A stretch of 62,240 nt of DNA. It comes from a virus. Of this stretch, positions 2-61,742 are shown one piece after another (positions within the stretch are counted from its first letter, which is position 1; every line of letters begins with the position of its first letter). Location of the stretch: the IMG/VR virus record IMGVR_UViG_3300025120_000045, positions 1 to 62,240 of that record, one strand, 5' to 3'. The position numbers and the translations under genes were made by a program. A model generated the notes under the pieces. It ran no database searches. It was not told the DNA's origin and saw nothing but the letters and a program-made list of their open reading frames with translations.

Positions 2-136
2 GCTGTCACATATATGACAGATCATGTTTTAGGTAAGTCAGTTGACGCTAGAATGTCCTCATCCTGGTATGGGGCCAACTCAAGAGTGAAGGATAAAGCA
101 CTCAAGAAGGTCGTTGCATACGCAGATGCAGCCTAA
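2..136 (+). CDS. 3' end of an unidentified gene (partial)
   Basis: An open frame enters from the left edge and ends at TAA 134-136, giving the last 44 residues of a protein. The tail reads TDHVLGKSVDARMSSSWYG and then a Lys/Ala-rich end. I do not recognise the family from this piece. A strong UUCG hairpin terminator follows directly, so this is the last gene of a plus-strand unit. It also meets the antisense HNH gene tail to tail, with the two stop regions overlapping by a few bases. Confidence 0.7.
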   Translation, partial: AVTYMTDHVLGKSVDARMSSSWYGANSRVKDKALKKVVAYADAA

Positions 137-630
137 GGCTTTAATGGGATCCCTTCGGGGATCCTATTTTTCTTACTACAATTTTCAGATAAAGTTAACA
201 GTTGCAAGTTCCAAGGAACATGTAATCCTGTACAAGTCTTTCCATTGATAGGATAGATATGATCTACAGATAAGTTTAATTCTTTAGCTTTCTTATACAA
301 ATTAGATATCTCTTTTTTCATTTCTTTAGTTAACCATTTAGGAGTAGCTTTAGCTAGTGTTGCTCTTCTTAATGCAGTACCAGCTTTATATACTTCTGGT
401 CTTTTTTTATATGATGTAGCATTATATTTTTTTTGATTTCTTTTTCTAAAGTCAATACCACCTTCAGTATGTCTATATCTTTCATTAGACTTTAGATACT
501 CTTTCTTTTTATAATATGGTCTAGTCATCCAACATGGTTTACACATACTTTGATAACCATCTTTTCTTGTTTTATCTTTCCAATAAAAACTAAATTCTTT
601 TTCTTGTTGACATTTTGTACATTTCTTCAT
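133..630 (-). CDS. HNH endonuclease (free-standing homing type)
   Basis: This 165-residue protein has an N-terminal zinc-knuckle pair (C4-x2-C7 and C30-x2-C33). The middle is basic. A C-terminal HNH core follows, with the VDHIYP motif (D123, H124), then H137, VPWNLQ and a final Asn/Lys-rich stretch. This matches phage HNH nucleases that move as free-standing homing endonucleases. It is transcribed against its neighbours, as is common for mobile insertions. Its last codons overlap the terminator of the upstream gene. A CATAAATA element lies just upstream on the minus strand (636-643), very close to the ATG. The target site cannot be told from sequence. Confidence 0.85.
   Translation of the reverse strand: MKKCTKCQQEKEFSFYWKDKTRKDGYQSMCKPCWMTRPYYKKKEYLKSNERYRHTEGGIDFRKRNQKKYNATSYKKRPEVYKAGTALRRATLAKATPKWLTKEMKKEISNLYKKAKELNLSVDHIYPINGKTCTGLHVPWNLQLLTLSENCSKKNRIPEGIPLKP
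147..170 (+). terminator. Rho-independent terminator with UUCG tetraloop
   Basis: A 7-bp GC-rich stem (147-153 with 158-164) closes on TTCG (154-157) and is followed by a T-rich run. It ends the truncated upstream gene. The same bases encode the C-terminal residues of the antisense HNH protein, so the hairpin is under two constraints. Confidence 0.85.
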
Positions 631-1019: not shown

Positions 1020-1081
1020 CATTCTAAAATAAAATATCTATTATTAACGAAATTAATCGATTTCTTAACGAGTTGTTCATC

Positions 1082-1108
1082 TTGTATTCAGCATTGGTAT
1101 GGTATAGT
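1082..1108 (+). promoter_or_regulatory. sigma70-like promoter for pqqA
   Basis: An extended -10 TGG-TATAGT (1100-1108) with a weak -35-like TTGTAT (1082-1087) at 15-base spacing. It lies about 80 bases before pqqA and differs from the late TATAAATA elements, which suggests expression by the unmodified host polymerase. Confidence 0.5.
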
Positions 1109-1156
1109 AACTAAATAAAGATGAGGATCGCGGATCAAACGATCAACCGACTCGTT

Positions 1157-1172
1157 TTAATGTTAACATTAA
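1157..1172 (+). promoter_or_regulatory. 16-bp perfect palindrome in the pqqA leader
   Basis: TTAATGTTAACATTAA is a perfect inverted repeat between the predicted promoter and the AAGGAG ribosome site (1177-1182). It could be an operator or a leader structure that masks the ribosome site. Its function is not shown by sequence alone. Confidence 0.4.
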
Positions 1173-1188
1173 CTACAAGGAGCATAAA

Positions 1189-1266
1189 ATGGCTTGGCAA
1201 AAACCAACAATTACAGAAATTTCTGTAGGTTTAGAAATTAACTCTTACGCTTGCGCTGAGAAGTAA
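1189..1266 (+). CDS. pqqA: PqqA, PQQ precursor peptide
   Basis: A 25-codon gene with an ideal AAGGAG ribosome site six bases before ATG. The peptide begins MAWQKPTITEISVG and ends LEINSYACAEK. PqqA is the ribosomal peptide from which pyrroloquinoline quinone is made: PqqE (with PqqD) links the Glu and Tyr side chains of an E-x3-Y motif. Here Glu16 and Tyr20 fall at exactly the positions used in characterised PqqA peptides, and the MAW-KP start is typical of alphaproteobacterial versions. No pqqB, C, D or E is visible in the window, so maturation would need host enzymes. The gene has its own promoter and terminator and is not part of an operon. Alternative: a PqqA-derived peptide with another role. 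Confidence 0.9.
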   Translation: MAWQKPTITEISVGLEINSYACAEK

Positions 1267-1280
1267 TTTCGTCCACGATT

Positions 1281-1304
1281 AGCCCTCAACCGAGGGCTTT
1301 ATCA
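1281..1304 (+). terminator. Terminator of the pqqA unit
   Basis: A 7-bp stem AGCCCTC/GAGGGCT (1281-1287 with 1292-1298) with an AACC loop and a short T run. It isolates pqqA from iscU. Confidence 0.8.
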
Positions 1305-1310
1305 TAAATA
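1303..1310 (+). promoter_or_regulatory. Late-promoter-like CATAAATA before iscU
   Basis: One mismatch from TATAAATA, placed after the pqqA terminator and 6 bases before the iscU ATG. The resulting leader would be very short. Confidence 0.35.
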
Positions 1311-1315
1311 CATGT

Positions 1316-1720
1316 ATGGCATACAGTAAAGAACTTCTTGATCATTACGAGAACCCAAGAAATGTTGGATCCATGGACAAAAAGAACCCAAATGTGGGAA
1401 CTGGTCTAGTTGGTGCACCTGCATGTGGGGATGTAATGAAACTTCAAATAGAAGTTGATCCAGACACCAATGTAATAACAGATGCAAAGTTTAAAACCTT
1501 TGGATGTGGAAGTGCGATTGCAAGCTCTAGTCTCATTACAGAAATGGTCAAAGATAAAAACATTGATGATGCCGCTAAGATTGAAAACACTACAATAGCT
1601 AAGTCCTTAGCATTGCCACCAGTAAAAATACATTGCTCTGTTCTAGCAGAGGATGCTATTAAAGCTGCAGTAGAAGACTACAAAGTAAAATGTGGTTGTA
1701 AATCAACTGTTGCCAAATAG
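1316..1720 (+). CDS. iscU: IscU-like Fe-S cluster scaffold protein
   Basis: A full-length 134-residue IscU/NifU-N protein. In Fe-S biogenesis IscU receives sulfur from IscS and iron, then passes a [2Fe-2S] cluster to apoproteins with HscA/HscB. The cluster ligands are all present: C37 and D39 (APACGD), C64 (FGCGSA), H106 and C107 (KIHCSV). The LPPVK motif that binds the HscA chaperone is intact at 100-104, so it should plug into the host ISC machinery. An extra KCGCK lies at the C-terminus. No iscS or hscA is nearby. It sits between pqqA and a lysin gene, away from replication genes. It may sustain Fe-S supply for respiratory or replication enzymes during infection. Confidence 0.93.
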   Translation: MAYSKELLDHYENPRNVGSMDKKNPNVGTGLVGAPACGDVMKLQIEVDPDTNVITDAKFKTFGCGSAIASSSLITEMVKDKNIDDAAKIENTTIAKSLALPPVKIHCSVLAEDAIKAAVEDYKVKCGCKSTVAK

Positions 1721-2961: not shown

Positions 2962-3553
2962 AGGCTTTGATGCTTATAAAGTTTACTTAGCTGTACGTAA
3001 TCATTTTACTACTACATACGATTACTTTAAGTATAGTGGTAAAGTAAATGTGAAAGAAGAAAGTTTTTTAAAACGTAGAGACAAGTTTTTCTTTAGTAAG
3101 TTAGAGCGTAAGTATAACAAACAACAATTGAGAGATTTATTTGTTAGCAACTTTGCTGATGGAGAAGACTTTTGGATTGGTAATGTGCTGACATTGAAGT
3201 CAGAAAAAGTATATATTGAATGGAAGAAGAGACAAGATAGTTTGTCATATATCTTAGAAAATGATTTTAAATTTTTAAAAGATTATTATGATGAAAGAAA
3301 TATTGACTTTAATAGTTTATTTGTAATGGAAGACGGCCATCCTATACTATTAAAATGTATATTAAGAAATGACATATATGTAGAAACTATGATAATAATA
3401 GATAGAGTTTTGAATTATTCTAGGAAATGGAGTAAGGTTTTAGACGATCCAGTATGGACAGAGTTTAAAAAGAGAATGGATAAGTATAGTCCATTTGTAG
3501 TGTTTAACGATAAAAAAGGAAAAGAAATTTTAAGAAAGGTATTTGTAAAATGA
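2945..3553 (+). CDS. 59: gp59 helicase loader
   Basis: A 202-residue protein matching T4 gp59 (217 residues), which loads the replicative helicase gp41 onto gp32-coated single-stranded DNA. The N-terminus carries the family signature GFDAYKVYLAVRNHFTT and then YDYFKYSGKV. The C-terminal half has the LKDYYDERNIDFNSLF and MEDGHPILLK blocks. The start overlaps the gp33 stop region and the end overlaps the peroxiredoxin ATG. This points to one replication operon that ends with gp32. Confidence 0.9.
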   Translation: MKNIYEGFDAYKVYLAVRNHFTTTYDYFKYSGKVNVKEESFLKRRDKFFFSKLERKYNKQQLRDLFVSNFADGEDFWIGNVLTLKSEKVYIEWKKRQDSLSYILENDFKFLKDYYDERNIDFNSLFVMEDGHPILLKCILRNDIYVETMIIIDRVLNYSRKWSKVLDDPVWTEFKKRMDKYSPFVVFNDKKGKEILRKVFVK

Positions 3554-4095
3554 TAAAAAAAGGTAACACAGTTCCCTATACAGCTTTTCATATAAGAGAA
3601 AGAGATGAATCTATTGGAGGAGATAATCCTTATAAGTGGGTAAGAAAAAGTAGTCTTGATATTTTTGAAAAAGGAAAATATATTTTATTTTCACTTCCTG
3701 GTGCTTTCACACCAACGTGTTCAACATATCAACTACCAGATTTTAATAAGTTATATTTGGAGTTTAAAGAGTTTGGAATAGATGAGATTTATTGTATATC
3801 TGTTAATGATTCTTTTGTAATGAATGCTTGGGCAAAGCACCACGACATTGGTAAAGTAAAAGTACTTCCAGATGGTAATGGAGAGTTCACAGATTCAGTT
3901 AACATGATAGTTGAAAAACAAAATCTTGGCTTTGGTAAAAGGTCATGGAGATATGCAGCTATAATAAAAGATGGTACATTTGATGAAGTGTTTGTTGAAC
4001 CTGGTATGGAAGATAATCATGGACAGGATCCATATGAAGTTTCATCACCACAAAATATATTAAAATATTTAAAAGGAGAAAGTTATGAATCTTGA
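3550..4095 (+). CDS. Peroxiredoxin (Prx5-type redoxin)
   Basis: A 181-residue thioredoxin-fold peroxidase. The active-site motif PGAFTPTC occupies 50-57, with C57 as peroxidatic cysteine. A following EFGIDEIYCISVND block and GKRSWRYAA (conserved Arg) match the Prx5/AhpE-like class. It reduces hydrogen peroxide and organic peroxides using thiols, possibly the phage glutaredoxin at 59331. It is embedded between gp59 and gp32 with overlapping ends, so it should be co-expressed with the replication proteins. Confidence 0.9.
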   Translation: MIKKGNTVPYTAFHIRERDESIGGDNPYKWVRKSSLDIFEKGKYILFSLPGAFTPTCSTYQLPDFNKLYLEFKEFGIDEIYCISVNDSFVMNAWAKHHDIGKVKVLPDGNGEFTDSVNMIVEKQNLGFGKRSWRYAAIIKDGTFDEVFVEPGMEDNHGQDPYEVSSPQNILKYLKGESYES

Positions 4096-33542: not shown

Positions 33543-35000
33543 ATGACAAGTCTGTCAGAAACAAGTATGTTAGCAGGTGCTGCTGGTCAAAGCACTGGAT
33601 TCACAATAGGTCAATCAATTCGATTCAATAAAGCTGATAGTGCTTATATAAGCAGAACAGTATCAAGTGCTGGCAATCAAAGAACATTTACTATAAGTTG
33701 GTGGTGGAAATTTGGATTACTTGGAAGTCTAAGTGGTGCTGCACATCAACTTTGGAACAGTTATGCAGACAACAATAATCGTTTTTCTATAATGATTGAT
33801 AATGATGTAGGAAGTGGTGCTGCTGGAGATAAGTTATGTATTTTTAATAATGCTAGTGGTACAACACAAGAGATATTAGAAACAAATAGATTATTCAGAG
33901 ATCCTAGCGCATGGTATCATTTTGTTGTTACAGTTGATACGACTCAAGCAACTAAATTTGAACGAGTTAGATTATATGTCAACGGAGAAAGAGAATCAAA
34001 TTATGCTGAAAGTTCAATGCCTGCACAAAACTATCAAATGAATTGGAATGCAGCAAATCTTCATTTATTTGGTAAGTATGGAGGTGGTACAAGTAATAAT
34101 GCTGATGGTTATATGGCAGAGTGTAATCATATTGATGGAACAGCTTTAGGTCCAGAAAATTTTGGAGAGTTTAAAGAAGATACCAATATTTGGATCCCTA
34201 AAAAATATACTGGATCATATGGAACAAATGGATTTAGAATAACAGGAGAAACAAACAACGATTTAGGTAAAAATGTAGCATCAGGAAATACGTTTGCTAC
34301 TTATGCTTCTACTAATCTTGCAACTAATGACCAAAGAGCAGATACTCCTACAAATAATCAAATAACATTTAATCCATTAAACAATCAACAAAGTGGTGGT
34401 ACACTAACTAATGGTAATTTAGAGTATACAGGACCTAGTACAAGAACAAATATTAGTTTAACAGCTAATATACCTGCAACAGGTAAATGGGCTGTTGCAT
34501 TTAAGGCAACTGATAATAGTAATGATGAGTGGAATATGGGAATAACAAAAGCTACAAATACTAACTTTGGAGATGCAGCTGGATCCAATGAAGCAATTGG
34601 TGGCCAAGATAATGATGGTATACAATTTTTACCTAGTAGTAATGATGCATCACTTTATAATTACATAGGCAGTGCTGCTATAGATCCAAGTTTACCTATT
34701 ACCACTAGTGATGAATTTTGGATGGCGGTTGATATGGGTACAGGAAAATGTTTTTTAGGAATTTATGATGCAAGTGCAACAGCAATGAAATTTGTTGCAG
34801 CTGATGCTGGTATTGATGGTAACCCAGCAACAGGTGACAACCCTACTATTACTATCTCAGATATGATTGGATCACTTGATTATGCATTTGCTGTAAATAG
34901 TAAAAGTACTAATGTTTGGACTTTATTAAGATCAACAGAAGTTAGTGGTACTACACCAACAGGATATACATACTTTGAAAACGTAAAGGATTTACTATAA
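33543..35000 (+). CDS. LamG/concanavalin-like adhesin
   Basis: 485 residues. The first 220 residues are a laminin-G-like jelly roll: SIRFNKADSAYISRTVSSAG, FTISWWWKFG, WYHFVVTVDTTQ, VRLYVNGERES and DGYMAECNHIDGTAL. The second half (from about 300) looks SPRY-like, with GKWAVAFKATDNSNDEWNMGI and FWMAVDMGTGKCFLGIYDAS. Both domain types bind carbohydrates or surface proteins, so this is a candidate receptor-binding protein. Paralogous to 35000 and, in the LamG part, to 50177. Confidence 0.78.
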   Translation: MTSLSETSMLAGAAGQSTGFTIGQSIRFNKADSAYISRTVSSAGNQRTFTISWWWKFGLLGSLSGAAHQLWNSYADNNNRFSIMIDNDVGSGAAGDKLCIFNNASGTTQEILETNRLFRDPSAWYHFVVTVDTTQATKFERVRLYVNGERESNYAESSMPAQNYQMNWNAANLHLFGKYGGGTSNNADGYMAECNHIDGTALGPENFGEFKEDTNIWIPKKYTGSYGTNGFRITGETNNDLGKNVASGNTFATYASTNLATNDQRADTPTNNQITFNPLNNQQSGGTLTNGNLEYTGPSTRTNISLTANIPATGKWAVAFKATDNSNDEWNMGITKATNTNFGDAAGSNEAIGGQDNDGIQFLPSSNDASLYNYIGSAAIDPSLPITTSDEFWMAVDMGTGKCFLGIYDASATAMKFVAADAGIDGNPATGDNPTITISDMIGSLDYAFAVNSKSTNVWTLLRSTEVSGTTPTGYTYFENVKDLL

Positions 35001-37480
35001 TGGCTGGAACAATAATAATTGGCAAACAACATATGAGCTCGTTCACATACGAGGGTAACGGTGGTGGTCAACGTGTAGGTAACTTTGTTCCATTCACCAA
35101 TGATGGTACTATAGCAAAAAGTGTTATGGTAGATTATAGCAGTAGTAGTTATTTACAAAGAACTCAAGATACAGTTGCTGGTGATGATAATAAAAGAAAA
35201 GCTACTTTTTCGTTTTGGTTTAAACCATCAGGAGCAAGGCTTGGTAATGAAACATGTTTATTTGGTGCAGCTCCTAGTGGAAGATTGTTTGCTAGATTTG
35301 ATACTTCAGATAGACTTATGCTTCGTTTAACAAACGGTACAACAGAATATCAAAAAGTTACAAACAGAACTTTTCAAACTACAGATAAGTTTTATCATTT
35401 TCTTTGGCAAGTAGATGCAAGTCAAAGTACTGCTACAGATAGATCACAACTTTATATAGATGGAGATAGAATAACAAGTTGGAATTCAGATAATAACCCA
35501 GCTCAAAATACAGATATTGTTGGATTAGCTGACGGTACAGTTATGAGAATATCATCTCTTTCACATTCTGCAGCTCAATTCTTTGATGGCTATATAGCTG
35601 AATTTAATTGTGTTTCTGGTTCTGTAGTTGCTCCTTCTGTATTTGGAGTAACTGATACTTCAACAGGTAGATGGGTCCCAAAAGCATTAACAGGTATAAC
35701 ATATGGTACCAATGGTTTCAGATGTACGTTTGCTAATACAGCTGGTCTTACTATAGGAGATGATACAAGTGGTAATGGAAATGATTTTGACACACTTAAT
35801 GGTATAGGAACCGATCATATAAGAACAGATAGCCCTACACAAAATTTTATAACTGCTGATCCTTTTACAGCTATTGGTACTGCTCCAACTCTTAAAGAAG
35901 GAGGTTTGCAATTAGTTTATGCTTCTGGATCAGGATATCCTAAAATTGGTTTTAATAAAACAATTCCTCAATCAGGTAAATGGTATTGGGAAGTCAAAGC
36001 AACAGCTGTAGGTGGATATCAAGGTATAGCTAATCCAGATTGTGGTTTAGCAGATCTTAATTTAATTCAAGTTCAAGCAATACCTACAAATGCTAATATG
36101 GCAGGATCTGCTGGTGTCTTGGCATGTAGAATGGAAAGTGGTTTTAAATTTACTGATGTAAGATCAACTTCACAATCTTTGTCTACTATTGGATCTACTA
36201 ACATGGCTGACGGAGATTATTGGTTATGGGCCCTTGATATGGATAATGGTAAATTATTTATAGGTCACTATGATGCATCAGGAACATCTACAACATATTT
36301 TGCTGCTGATGGTGGAACAGATGGTAACCCTGCTAATGGAACTAATCCAACATTTGAATTTGATCCAAAAGATCATAGATTTGTTCCTGTTCAAGAGGTT
36401 TTTGCACCAGGCAGTTATGCTTCTACTTGGGATTATAATTTTGGATCTAAAGCATATGATTTTACAGCACCATCAGGATATGGTAAATTAAGTCAAGAAA
36501 ACTTTCCTGAATCTGATGAAGGTATAGGTGGAATGGTTTGGGTTAAAAATAGAGATACAACTGATTACCATACAATTTATGATAGTAGCAGAGGAATTAG
36601 TAAAGAAATTTATCCTAACGATACATCTGCTGAAGCAAGTGCAGTTGCAGATGGATTAAAGAAATTTCTTAAAGGTGGATTTGCAACAGAGGATGCTGTC
36701 AACTTAAATGAAGCAGGTGAAAGTTTTGTTGCATGGAACTGGGTTGCTAATGGTGGAACTACTGCTGCTAATACAGATGGTTCAGGAGCTAGTATAGCAT
36801 CAACTACTCAAGCAAATCAAACTGCTGGGTTTAGTATTGTTCAATATACAGGAACAGGTAGTGCAGGAACTGTAGCACATGGATTAAGTGCTGCACCAAC
36901 TATGATTGCAGTAAAAAATTTAGGTGACTCGGCATCATGGTATGTTTATATGAATGTGACACGAGCTGCTAGTCCCAATACTTATTATATGAGATTTGAT
37001 AGTGATGATTCACAATCTCAAACAGGTGCAGTATGGAATGATACCACTCCTACTTCAAGTGTGTTCACGGTAGGTGGGGAAGATACGTCTAATAAAAATA
37101 CTAAAAATTATGTAGCATATTGTTGGACAGATATACCAGGATATTCAAGAGTTGGAACCTTCAACGGAAATGCAAATGCGGATGGTTCATTTGTTTATAC
37201 CGGGTTCAGACCTCAATGGTTGATGATTAAAGGATTAGATGTTGGTAATGGGTGGACAGTTTGGGATTCTGCACGAAGTGTTAGAAATCCATTAGATACA
37301 GCATTATTTTGGAATACAACTGGTGCTGATGATACTGGCAATACTATAGATTTTTTATCTAATGGTTTTAAACCAAGAAGTACTAATGCAGATTTTAATG
37401 GTAGTAACATATATGGATACTTAGCTTTTGCTGAACATCCATTTAATGGTGATGGTACTAACCCATGCACAGCAAGATAG
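35000..37480 (+). CDS. Large LamG/SPRY-type adhesin
   Basis: 826 residues. The LamG-like domain (about 45-230) has KATFSFWFKPSGAR, FYHFLWQVDAS and QLYIDGDRITSW. A SPRY-like domain (about 315-480) has GKWYWEVKATAVGG and YWLWALDMDNGKLFIGHYDASG. A third repeat-like C-terminal region contains GGMVWVKNRDTTDYH and FSIVQYTGTGSAGTVAHGL, typical of marine phage fibre tips. It is coupled by one base to the previous adhesin. Probably host-recognition protein. Confidence 0.78.
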   Translation: MAGTIIIGKQHMSSFTYEGNGGGQRVGNFVPFTNDGTIAKSVMVDYSSSSYLQRTQDTVAGDDNKRKATFSFWFKPSGARLGNETCLFGAAPSGRLFARFDTSDRLMLRLTNGTTEYQKVTNRTFQTTDKFYHFLWQVDASQSTATDRSQLYIDGDRITSWNSDNNPAQNTDIVGLADGTVMRISSLSHSAAQFFDGYIAEFNCVSGSVVAPSVFGVTDTSTGRWVPKALTGITYGTNGFRCTFANTAGLTIGDDTSGNGNDFDTLNGIGTDHIRTDSPTQNFITADPFTAIGTAPTLKEGGLQLVYASGSGYPKIGFNKTIPQSGKWYWEVKATAVGGYQGIANPDCGLADLNLIQVQAIPTNANMAGSAGVLACRMESGFKFTDVRSTSQSLSTIGSTNMADGDYWLWALDMDNGKLFIGHYDASGTSTTYFAADGGTDGNPANGTNPTFEFDPKDHRFVPVQEVFAPGSYASTWDYNFGSKAYDFTAPSGYGKLSQENFPESDEGIGGMVWVKNRDTTDYHTIYDSSRGISKEIYPNDTSAEASAVADGLKKFLKGGFATEDAVNLNEAGESFVAWNWVANGGTTAANTDGSGASIASTTQANQTAGFSIVQYTGTGSAGTVAHGLSAAPTMIAVKNLGDSASWYVYMNVTRAASPNTYYMRFDSDDSQSQTGAVWNDTTPTSSVFTVGGEDTSNKNTKNYVAYCWTDIPGYSRVGTFNGNANADGSFVYTGFRPQWLMIKGLDVGNGWTVWDSARSVRNPLDTALFWNTTGADDTGNTIDFLSNGFKPRSTNADFNGSNIYGYLAFAEHPFNGDGTNPCTAR

Positions 37481-59228: not shown

Positions 59229-59338
59229 TGGTAGATAAAGAAGGATACACTCAAAGACAATGGGACAGAGTTGTAGGTTATGGTAAGGTTCCAAAAGAAT
59301 ATGCATTACGCTCAAAGAAAGAAAAGAAAGATGTATAA
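59228..59338 (+). CDS. Small conserved-type ORF
   Basis: 36 residues: MVDKEGYTQRQWDRVVGYGK followed by a Lys-rich tail. It is linked on both sides by overlaps: TAATG with gp55 and 8 bases with glutaredoxin. It fits the tight spacing of this operon. Family unknown. Confidence 0.55.
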   Translation: MVDKEGYTQRQWDRVVGYGKVPKEYALRSKKEKKDV

Positions 59339-59552
59339 ATTATATACAACTCCATCATGTGGATTTTGTATTATGGCTAAACAATTATTAGCTAATAATA
59401 ATCTTGAGTATGAAGAAGTATGCATACAGACAGACGAACAAGAAAAACAAAAAATTAAAGATATGGGCTTTTCAACTGTACCACAAATATGGAAAGATGG
59501 AGACCATGTTGGTGGTTATTATGAACTAAAGGAGAGTTTCAATGAGAGTTAA
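59331..59552 (+). CDS. Glutaredoxin
   Basis: 73 residues from ATG 59331, in frame within a longer ORF whose upstream part overlaps other genes. The active site is TTPSCGFCIMA (C9-x2-C12), followed by FSTVPQIWKDGDHVGGYYEL with the cis-Pro Val-Pro and GG motifs. It reduces disulfides, ribonucleotide reductase or peroxiredoxin. T4 has the analogous nrdC. Confidence 0.92.
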   Translation: MYKLYTTPSCGFCIMAKQLLANNNLEYEEVCIQTDEQEKQKIKDMGFSTVPQIWKDGDHVGGYYELKESFNES

Positions 59553-60200: not shown

Positions 60201-61742
60201 ATGCATATTATATTTCCTAAACTAGAAAAATATCAAAGATTAATATTAAAGAAGATGGATCGTAAAAACGAATACCATCTTCATGGTTATGCTTGGTTTA
60301 AAACATATGTAGAGTCAATTAAACAATTGGTCTTTTGGCATAATGAATTAGAATCGCCCAGTGAATTAGATACATTAATATATGAGGTAGGAATAAATGA
60401 ATATGTCTCTGATTTAAGAGATGGTATATCAATGAGTCAAACAGAAAAATTTAGATTAGATGATATAGGTTTTCAAAAGTTTGATCTAATAAGAGACTTT
60501 AAGGTTTATGATTACAATGATAAAAAAAGAAAGATAGCAAAACTTTTATCACAAGGACAAAAAGCAAGTTTTGGATATAAAGATGAATCTCTAAAGATAA
60601 TTCAAGAACAGTTTCAAAAGTTTACAGAAGAAGAAATTAAACCACAAGCTCACGAATGGCATTTAAAGAATGATCTAATTCCAGATGAAGTGTTAGATAA
60701 AATGAATGATATGGGTGTTAGTGCTATTGGTATACCAGAAAAGTATGATGGTCTGGCAATGTCAAAAGAAGCTATGTGCATTATAACAGAAGAACTATCA
60801 AGAGGATTATTAACAGCTGGTTCTATTGGAACAAGAGCTGAGATATGTGGTGAGTTAATTAATTTAGGTGGTACTGAACAACAAAAAGAAAAGTACTTAT
60901 CCAAGATAGCAAAAGGTGATTGTTTAACAGCAGCGGTATTTACTGAACCAAATACAGGAAGTGATTTAGCAAATTTAAATACAAGAGCTATCAAAGATGG
61001 TGACGATTATATTATTACAGGAAACAAAACTTGGACTACTCATGGTGTAAGAAGTGATATGTTTACAGTACTAGCAAGAACTGGTGAGCCAGGGTATAAA
61101 GGTTTAAGTATGTTCTTAGTTGATAAACCAAGAGGAACAGATCAAGACCCATTTCCTCATCCTAACATGCAAGGTAGTGAAATAGAAGTTCTTGGATATA
61201 GAGGTATGAAAGAATATGAAATAAGTTTAGATGAAGTTAGAGTTAGTAAAGATCAACTTCTTGGTGGTGTAGAAGGACAAGGTTTTAAACAATTAATGGA
61301 AACATTTGAAGGTGCAAGAATCCAAACAGCAGCAAGAGCTGTTGGTGTAGCTCAGAGTGCTTTAGATGAAGCCTTACAATATGCAATAGATAGAACGCAG
61401 TTTGATAAAAAAATTATAGAGTTTGATCGTATAGCATTCAAGATAGCTATGATGGCTGTACATATAGTTGTATCAAGAGCAATTACAATGTATAGTGCTG
61501 AAAAGAAAGACCAAGGAGTTAGATGTGATATTGAAGCAGGTATGGCAAAACTATTAGCTGCAAGAAATGCCTGGATGATATCTGATGATAGTTTACAAGT
61601 ACATGGTGGTAATGGATATGCATTAGAATATCCAATATCAAGAATCCTTTGTGATGCAAGAATTTTAAATATATTTGAAGGTGCAGCAGAAATACAAAGT
61701 CTGATAGTTGCAAAGAATATATTAAAAAATGAAGACAAGTAG
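60201..61742 (+). CDS. mcd: (2S)-methylsuccinyl-CoA dehydrogenase-like acyl-CoA dehydrogenase
   Basis: 513 residues. An N-terminal extension of about 125 residues (HGYAWFKTYVESIKQLVFWH and ISMSQTEKFRLDDIG) precedes the acyl-CoA dehydrogenase fold. This layout is the mark of Mcd of the ethylmalonyl-CoA pathway. FAD and substrate blocks: AVFTEPNTGSDLANLNTRA, GNKTWTTHGVRSDMF, KGLSMFLVDKPRGTD, EIEVLGYRGMKEYE, LQVHGGNGYALEYP, and IFEGAAEIQ with the general base E493. The reaction is methylsuccinyl-CoA to mesaconyl-CoA. ATG 60255 is an alternative start. It looks intact and not decayed. A related acyl-CoA dehydrogenase activity is possible. Confidence 0.85.
   Translation: MHIIFPKLEKYQRLILKKMDRKNEYHLHGYAWFKTYVESIKQLVFWHNELESPSELDTLIYEVGINEYVSDLRDGISMSQTEKFRLDDIGFQKFDLIRDFKVYDYNDKKRKIAKLLSQGQKASFGYKDESLKIIQEQFQKFTEEEIKPQAHEWHLKNDLIPDEVLDKMNDMGVSAIGIPEKYDGLAMSKEAMCIITEELSRGLLTAGSIGTRAEICGELINLGGTEQQKEKYLSKIAKGDCLTAAVFTEPNTGSDLANLNTRAIKDGDDYIITGNKTWTTHGVRSDMFTVLARTGEPGYKGLSMFLVDKPRGTDQDPFPHPNMQGSEIEVLGYRGMKEYEISLDEVRVSKDQLLGGVEGQGFKQLMETFEGARIQTAARAVGVAQSALDEALQYAIDRTQFDKKIIEFDRIAFKIAMMAVHIVVSRAITMYSAEKKDQGVRCDIEAGMAKLLAARNAWMISDDSLQVHGGNGYALEYPISRILCDARILNIFEGAAEIQSLIVAKNILKNEDK

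What the first reader, a model, noticed from the sequence alone, without database searches (positions are those of the whole stretch)
1082..1304. Phage-encoded PqqA as a self-contained transcription unit
A 25-residue peptide has Glu16 and Tyr20 at the exact positions that PqqE cross-links in known PQQ precursors, and the alphaproteobacterial MAW-KP start. It has its own sigma70-like promoter, a perfect ribosome site and a terminator. None of pqqB-E is visible here. The phage may boost PQQ supply (precursor may limit) for host alcohol or sugar dehydrogenases, or may use the peptide as a decoy. It is easily missed because 25 codons fall below gene-caller limits.
Basis: partly seen in the sequence, partly recalled or inferred. 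Interest (0 to 1): 0.92.

Follow-up and report, generated by a model that had tools for sequence, protein, structure and literature searches.

The report
Phage PQQ-precursor gene with RNA leader
This marine phage carries a real, strongly conserved gene for the 25-residue peptide from which bacteria build the redox cofactor PQQ; such genes are widespread but overlooked in phages, and in this group they are preceded by a structured RNA element absent from the RNA-family library, which may control how much precursor the phage makes.

Summary
The 25-codon ORF at 1189-1266 is a genuine pqqA (above the Pfam and NCBIfam cut-offs). In scans that left the two cross-linking residues free, Glu16 and Tyr20 never change (120/120 and 82/82 complete loci) although their codons vary silently, so the peptide looks selected as a substrate, not a decoy. 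No pqqE is in the window or in 50 pqqA phage records; the likely host, the alphaproteobacterial order HIMB59/AEGEAN-169, has the pathway, a PQQ alcohol dehydrogenase and usually extra pqqA copies. Main new result: a covarying hairpin at 1123-1153, absent from Rfam, precedes pqqA. A virome scan for the hairpin alone returned 120 stretches: 118 have pqqA 8-32 nt downstream, 2 are cut by contig ends inside a pqqA start. It occurs in unrelated phage lineages and once on a host rpoH gene. Best reading: the phage supplies stoichiometric PQQ precursor to host enzymes, under control of an RNA leader. Phage PqqA was reported in 2020; the leader, ubiquity and HIMB59 link appear new.

The parts
1189..1266 (+). 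pqqA, 25 codons, MAWQKPTITEISVGLEINSYACAEK; Glu16 and Tyr20 are the PqqE cross-link residues
   Evidence: PF08042 31.1 bits, TIGR02107 38.7 bits, own-record search; invariant E16/Y20 in relatives
1123..1153 (+). Conserved structured RNA leader: P1 GAG/CUC, bulge G-A, P2, GCG/AACC internal loop with bulged C and AA, P3 GAUC/GAUC, AAAC loop
   Evidence: covariation, model R1 hit 36.7 bits, pattern unique in window with none in 100 shuffles, next to pqqA in the virome
1177..1182 (+). Shine-Dalgarno AAGGAG, 6 nt before ATG
   Evidence: sequence; statistics
1100..1108 (+). Extended -10 element TGGTATAGT; predicted transcription start about 1115, just before the leader
   Evidence: column conserved in five relatives; no consensus -35. 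Inference
1065..1090 (+). Three TTMA half-sites spaced 11 bp upstream of the -10; possible response-regulator site
   Evidence: present in window, L272, L262, L017, L122 but not L260 or L253; not above chance window-wide. Weak
1281..1298 (+). Terminator-like hairpin with short T-run between pqqA and iscU
   Evidence: not called by the scanner
1316..1720 (+). IscU-type Fe-S scaffold gene, next gene downstream
   Evidence: TIGR01999 212.5 bits; same order in L272, L262, L122, L260, L017

Best explanation
The phage makes its own PqqA. PqqA is not a catalyst but the raw material of PQQ: one peptide is consumed per cofactor, so it is the pathway component that must be resupplied once host transcription is shut down, while the host's PqqB, C, D and E can go on working. 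The phage peptide is taken by host PqqD/PqqE, cross-linked at Glu16-Tyr20 and converted to PQQ, keeping PQQ-dependent alcohol dehydrogenases running during infection. The mRNA starts with a structured RNA leader just upstream of the ribosome site that most likely controls pqqA translation or mRNA stability by binding a protein or small ligand. Shown here: a true pqqA, strict purifying selection on the substrate residues, no pqqE in 50 pqqA phage records, host pathway and extra host pqqA copies, covarying leader tied to pqqA. Inferred: turnover by host enzymes, benefit during infection, HIMB59 host, regulatory role of the leader.
For: HMM hits. Scan leaving residues 15, 16, 19, 20 free: 120/120 keep E16 and Y20; 99 distinct coding sequences with silent variation at E16 (GAA 69/GAG 30) and Y20 (TAT 66/TAC 33). 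The hairpin-only scan, blind to the peptide, gives 82/82 complete new loci with E16/Y20. pqqE above cut-off: 0 of 50 pqqA phage records. HIMB59 genomes: 10 of 11 have 2-5 pqqA, 10 of 11 have pqqE over cut-off, generally with one pqqA about 2 kb upstream, a PQQ alcohol dehydrogenase close to pqqE in most. The phage acyl-CoA dehydrogenase matches that order best among 289 alphaproteobacteria. Nine Methylophilales phage isolates carry pqqA; their hosts are methylotrophs, dependent on PQQ methanol dehydrogenase (general knowledge). Leader: 98.1% of cells paired, 7 of 10 pairs with two-sided changes, covariation 0.291 vs 0.135+-0.014, 0/500 shuffles; 42/42 structure-defined sequences in 132 records precede pqqA.
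Against: No expression or biochemical data. Host assignment is indirect. The leader is only marginally stable by energy (z about 0 to -0.8) and no ligand or protein is known. Most pqqA phages of the other two peptide groups lack it, so it is not needed for phage pqqA in general. One host carries the leader on rpoH, so it is not strictly a PQQ element.
Confidence: 0.66

Rival explanations
1. Decoy: the peptide occupies host PqqD/PqqE and lowers PQQ synthesis, for example to stop competing respiration.
For: Only the substrate peptide is encoded; a non-productive binder could act this way.
Against: Both reactive residues and the ACAE tail never change across lineages; a decoy would tolerate or favour loss of Glu16 or Tyr20. 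One pqqA phage (L061 record, 72 kb) also carries a PQQ methanol dehydrogenase, as in Baikal VP_266 (PMC7678222), which fits supply.
Confidence: 0.08
2. The cross-linked peptide or PQQ serves another end: a signal, an antioxidant, or protection of the infected cell.
For: A peroxiredoxin gene (3550-4095) and glutaredoxin gene (59280-59552) lie in the same genome. Antioxidant roles of PQQ are known from general knowledge.
Against: Distribution follows hosts with PQQ dehydrogenases; redox genes are common in marine T4-like phages (general knowledge).
Confidence: 0.1
3. The leader is not regulatory: it is a mobility or recombination signature copied with a pqqA cassette, or a plain 5' stabilising hairpin.
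For: Leader plus pqqA occurs in unrelated phage lineages, and a 65-nt leader-plus-SD stretch is 86% identical to the 5' UTR of rpoH in one host genome, so it moves.
Against: Compensatory changes in all helices, invariant internal-loop bases and constant orientation 8-32 nt before the start codon point to function in the RNA.
Confidence: 0.2
4. pqqA is a neutral relic of host DNA.
For: Very short gene.
Against: Silent-only variation at core codons over 99 distinct sequences, SD conservation, and conserved neighbourhood in several lineages.
Confidence: 0.01

Closest known systems
PqqA of bacterial pqqABCDE operons (PF08042 / TIGR02107), closest to HIMB59/AEGEAN-169 pqqA copies
   Same: Same length and motif; differs from HIMB59 MAWTKPTISEISVGLEINSYACAEK at two positions.
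   Different: Phage gene stands alone, without pqqE, and has a structured leader absent from all host pqqA examined.
PqqA of Lake Baikal phage population VP_266 (Coutinho et al. 2020, PMC7678222)
   Same: T4-type phage with pqqA as an auxiliary metabolic gene.
   Different: Methylophilaceae phage that also carries methanol dehydrogenase; the window phage fits an alphaproteobacterial host and has no such gene in its 62 kb ORF list; no leader was described.
Unannotated pqqA of Methylophilales phages P19250A, Venkman, MEP301, MEP401/402, Melnitz
   Same: Complete, SD-preceded pqqA over the Pfam cut-off.
   Different: Beta-type peptide (EMRFGFEVTMYVMNK); no R1 leader in the loci searched.
Compact riboswitches or translational-operator hairpins such as preQ1-I or phage coat-protein operators (from general knowledge)
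   Same: Short 5' UTR hairpin with conserved internal-loop bases next to the SD.
   Different: No Rfam family matches; ligand or protein unknown.

Membership tests
PqqA (PQQ precursor peptide) | HMM match over curated cut-offs | tested here: met
   PF08042 31.1 vs 21.1; TIGR02107 38.7 vs 20
PqqA (PQQ precursor peptide) | Glu-x-x-x-Tyr pair that PqqE cross-links, conserved | tested here: met
   E16/Y20 invariant in unselected sets
PqqA (PQQ precursor peptide) | PqqB-E available in trans | tested here: inconclusive
   pqqE absent from phage; pqqE present in 10 of 11 HIMB59 genomes, but the host is inferred; pqqB-D not profiled
PqqA (PQQ precursor peptide) | Converted to PQQ | not testable with these tools
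   needs in vitro reconstitution
Known Rfam cis-regulatory RNA | Match to any of 4227 families | tested here: not met
Riboswitch / regulatory leader (works like) | Covarying structure in the 5' UTR of one gene class | tested here: met
Riboswitch / regulatory leader (works like) | Binds ligand or protein and changes expression | not testable with these tools
   experiment needed

The most novel reading that the evidence does not exclude
The leader is a new class of metabolite-sensing RNA (for PQQ, a pathway intermediate, or a stress signal) that phages use to meter production of a cofactor precursor, and that at least one host has taken over for its heat-shock sigma gene rpoH.
Probability: 0.2. 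Interest if true: 0.92.

Novelty: new variant of a known kind. Interest (0 to 1): 0.72.

Why it matters
It shows that phages of streamlined aquatic bacteria widely carry the consumable part of a host cofactor pathway, in a gene small enough to be missed even in cultured phages, and that in one large group it comes with a conserved RNA element absent from Rfam. Cultured Methylophilales phage-host pairs make the supply hypothesis directly testable, and the leader is a candidate new regulatory RNA.

Tried and rejected
Sigma70/terminator scan gave no hit at the claimed sites. IscU as a partner: only a weak link (pqqA in 2 of 80 IscU phage loci; IscU in 8 of 132 leader records), so an IscU-PqqE link is not supported. 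T4-type late promoters TATAAATA are not enriched. An 11-bp half-site array that resembles HIMB59 rpoH promoters by eye was considered but is not above chance by itself. Leader in host genomes: none in 385 sampled alphaproteobacteria under strict filters (no positive control in that call), one in 32 of the HIMB59 order (the positive control G019 rang). No structure prediction was run; a 25-residue peptide would not inform.

Full report
OBSERVATION. The ORF at 1189-1266 (+) encodes MAWQKPTITEISVGLEINSYACAEK. It matches PF08042 at 31.1 bits (cut-off 21.1) and TIGR02107 at 38.7 bits (cut-off 20). No PHROG covers it. SD AAGGAG lies 6 nt upstream. There is no pqqE in the record. The promoter claim is half right: extended -10 TGGTATAGT (1100-1108) with its hexamer column kept in five relatives, but no consensus -35. 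The terminator hairpin 1281-1298 is real but has a weak T-run and is missing in two close relatives.

CONTEXT. The window is a T4-like phage. TerL is about 57% identical to cyanomyophage, pelagimyophage and Melnitz TerL. Downstream of pqqA come iscU, a cell-wall hydrolase, a cupin, gp33, the gp59 loader and a peroxiredoxin. L272 is almost the same phage (99.8%), and L262, L122, L260 and L017 keep the order pqqA-iscU-hydrolase-cupin-gp33-gp59 at 54-86% identity. In other T4-like lineages pqqA sits directly before gp33-gp59, in some of them behind a phage tmRNA gene.

PHAGE pqqA IS WIDESPREAD. Among 50,697 phage records (tblastn, six PqqA queries) credible hits fall in nine Methylophilales phage isolates, one spring metagenome phage and two metagenomic 'Acinetobacter phage' contigs. 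One further weak hit (Stenotrophomonas phage, E = 6) lies inside a tip attachment gene and is taken as chance. The five isolates examined have complete, SD-preceded ORFs of 37-43 bits, lying in unannotated gaps or, in Melnitz, under a hypothetical ORF on the other strand. The window's own peptide type is not in that collection.

SELECTION. The first pattern fixed E16 and Y20, so a second was run with residues 15, 16, 19 and 20 free: 120/120 keep E16 and Y20. Across 99 distinct coding sequences both codons vary only silently. The later hairpin-only scan, which put no constraint on the peptide, gave 82/82 complete new loci with E16 and Y20, including E10V variants. This fits a functional PqqE substrate and argues against a decoy.

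HOST. PqqAs closest to the window's are from marine alphaproteobacteria of the HIMB59/AEGEAN-169 group, named in record titles such as HIMB59-MED-G10. Independently, the window's acyl-CoA dehydrogenase (60201-61742), searched in 289 alphaproteobacterial genomes, has its four best matches in G001, G010, G258 and G027 at 62%, all in the same order. Of 11 such genomes, 10 carry 2-5 pqqA, 10 have pqqE over cut-off, generally with one pqqA about 2 kb upstream, and most have a PQQ alcohol dehydrogenase close to pqqE. Multiple orphan pqqA copies also occur in a methylotroph used for PQQ production (five copies; PMC9851590), consistent with precursor supply mattering. In 50 long pqqA-phage records pqqE is absent and a PQQ alcohol dehydrogenase occurs once, echoing Baikal VP_266 (PMC7678222).

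THE LEADER RNA. Aligning upstream regions revealed a conserved block. In 41 of 48 NSYACAE-type viral loci and 4 NCYACAE-type loci a hairpin of the form GUGGaCUGCGGUC-n-GACAACCAGCAC precedes pqqA. Alignment A1 (31 distinct): RNAalifold finds 10 pairs, 8 with two-sided compensatory change. For my structure 98.1% of cells pair, 7 of 10 pairs covary, score 0.291 vs 0.135 (0/500 shuffles); slid versions fall to 22-52%. The window version (GAG/CUC, UCG/CGA, GAUC/GAUC, 1123-1153) is itself a strongly compensated variant and unique in the window. Model R1 finds one copy per carrier locus, at the pqqA leader, and nothing significant in 78 pqqA-less IscU phage loci. The decisive test: a virome scan for the hairpin alone returned 120 stretches, 36 already held and 84 new; of the new ones 82 have pqqA starting 8-32 nt downstream and 2 are cut by contig ends after a pqqA start. 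A structure-only search over all loci then held gives 42 distinct sequences in 132 records, all before pqqA. Carriers include T4-like phages (37), phages with a podovirus-type portal (33), a group with ribonucleotide reductase (about 19) and others. Rfam has no match, and no relevant paper was found.

HOST rpoH. In HIMB59 single cell AG-896-A16 the same element (45.3 bits) lies about 30 nt before rpoH. The stretch including the SD is 86% identical over 65 nt to phage leaders. The rpoH genes recovered from other HIMB59 genomes lack it, and 1 of 32 genomes of the order has it. This suggests transfer of a portable leader, probably phage to host; an assembly chimera is not excluded.

MECHANISM. 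PqqA is consumed one per PQQ (established knowledge of the pathway), so it is the component a phage must resupply when host transcription stops; catalytic PqqB-E persist. Shown: gene, selection, absence of pqqE from the phage, host pathway, leader structure and linkage. Inferred: turnover by host enzymes, benefit, host identity, leader function. Protein binding, ligand sensing and mRNA stabilisation remain open for the leader; its low intrinsic stability with invariant loop bases favours a bound partner.

KNOWN VERSUS NEW. Phage PqqA is known (PMC7678222; also listed in PMC13188868). New here, as far as the held literature shows: presence in all Methylophilales phage isolates found, the alphaproteobacterial HIMB59-type group, strict substrate conservation, and the leader. 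Limits: row-capped scans, short contigs, no expression data, no bioRxiv access.

Noticed in passing
L518 10941-10983 (-), genome G008 contig C2: The phage pqqA leader RNA precedes rpoH in one HIMB59 single-cell genome, 86% identical over 65 nt including the SD to phage leaders; absent from the other HIMB59 genomes.
   Followed up: partly
L208 2105-2415 (-); L237 4648-4948 (-): Alpha-type permuted tmRNA gene directly upstream of pqqA in other T4-like phages; similar sequence signature in about a dozen further loci.
   Followed up: partly
window 60201-61742: Full-length acyl-CoA dehydrogenase in a T4-like phage, best matches in HIMB59 genomes at 62%.
   Followed up: partly
window 1303-1316: CATAAATA ends 5 nt before the iscU ATG with no clear SD: possible T4-type late promoter giving a leaderless iscU mRNA.
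   Followed up: no
L325 (MAG Maricaulis sp. IN14): Contig carries phage-type pqqA and leader and looks like a phage contig binned into a bacterial MAG.
   Followed up: partly
L330 312-524: Two near-identical pqqA copies in opposite orientations about 100 nt apart in a HIMB59 genome.
   Followed up: no
record of L061 (72 kb), 34049-35731: Phage record with pqqA also encodes a PQQ alcohol/methanol dehydrogenase over the family cut-off.
   Followed up: partly
upstream of pqqA in L040, L058, L206, L220, L279, L296: A different conserved, hairpin-like sequence (CUCCGGAGGGGGCAUC...CCCCCAAGACAAC) precedes NCYACAE-type pqqA; may be a second leader class.
   Followed up: no
window 133-630 (-): HNH / endonuclease VII-like gene (phrog_1035), possible homing endonuclease near the pqqA-iscU cassette.
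   Followed up: no
CAKLQF020000010.1 108204-108275; CAKLQH020000055.1 413-484: Metagenomic 'Acinetobacter phage' contigs carry an unannotated PqqA identical to an Acinetobacter-type query sequence.
   Followed up: no
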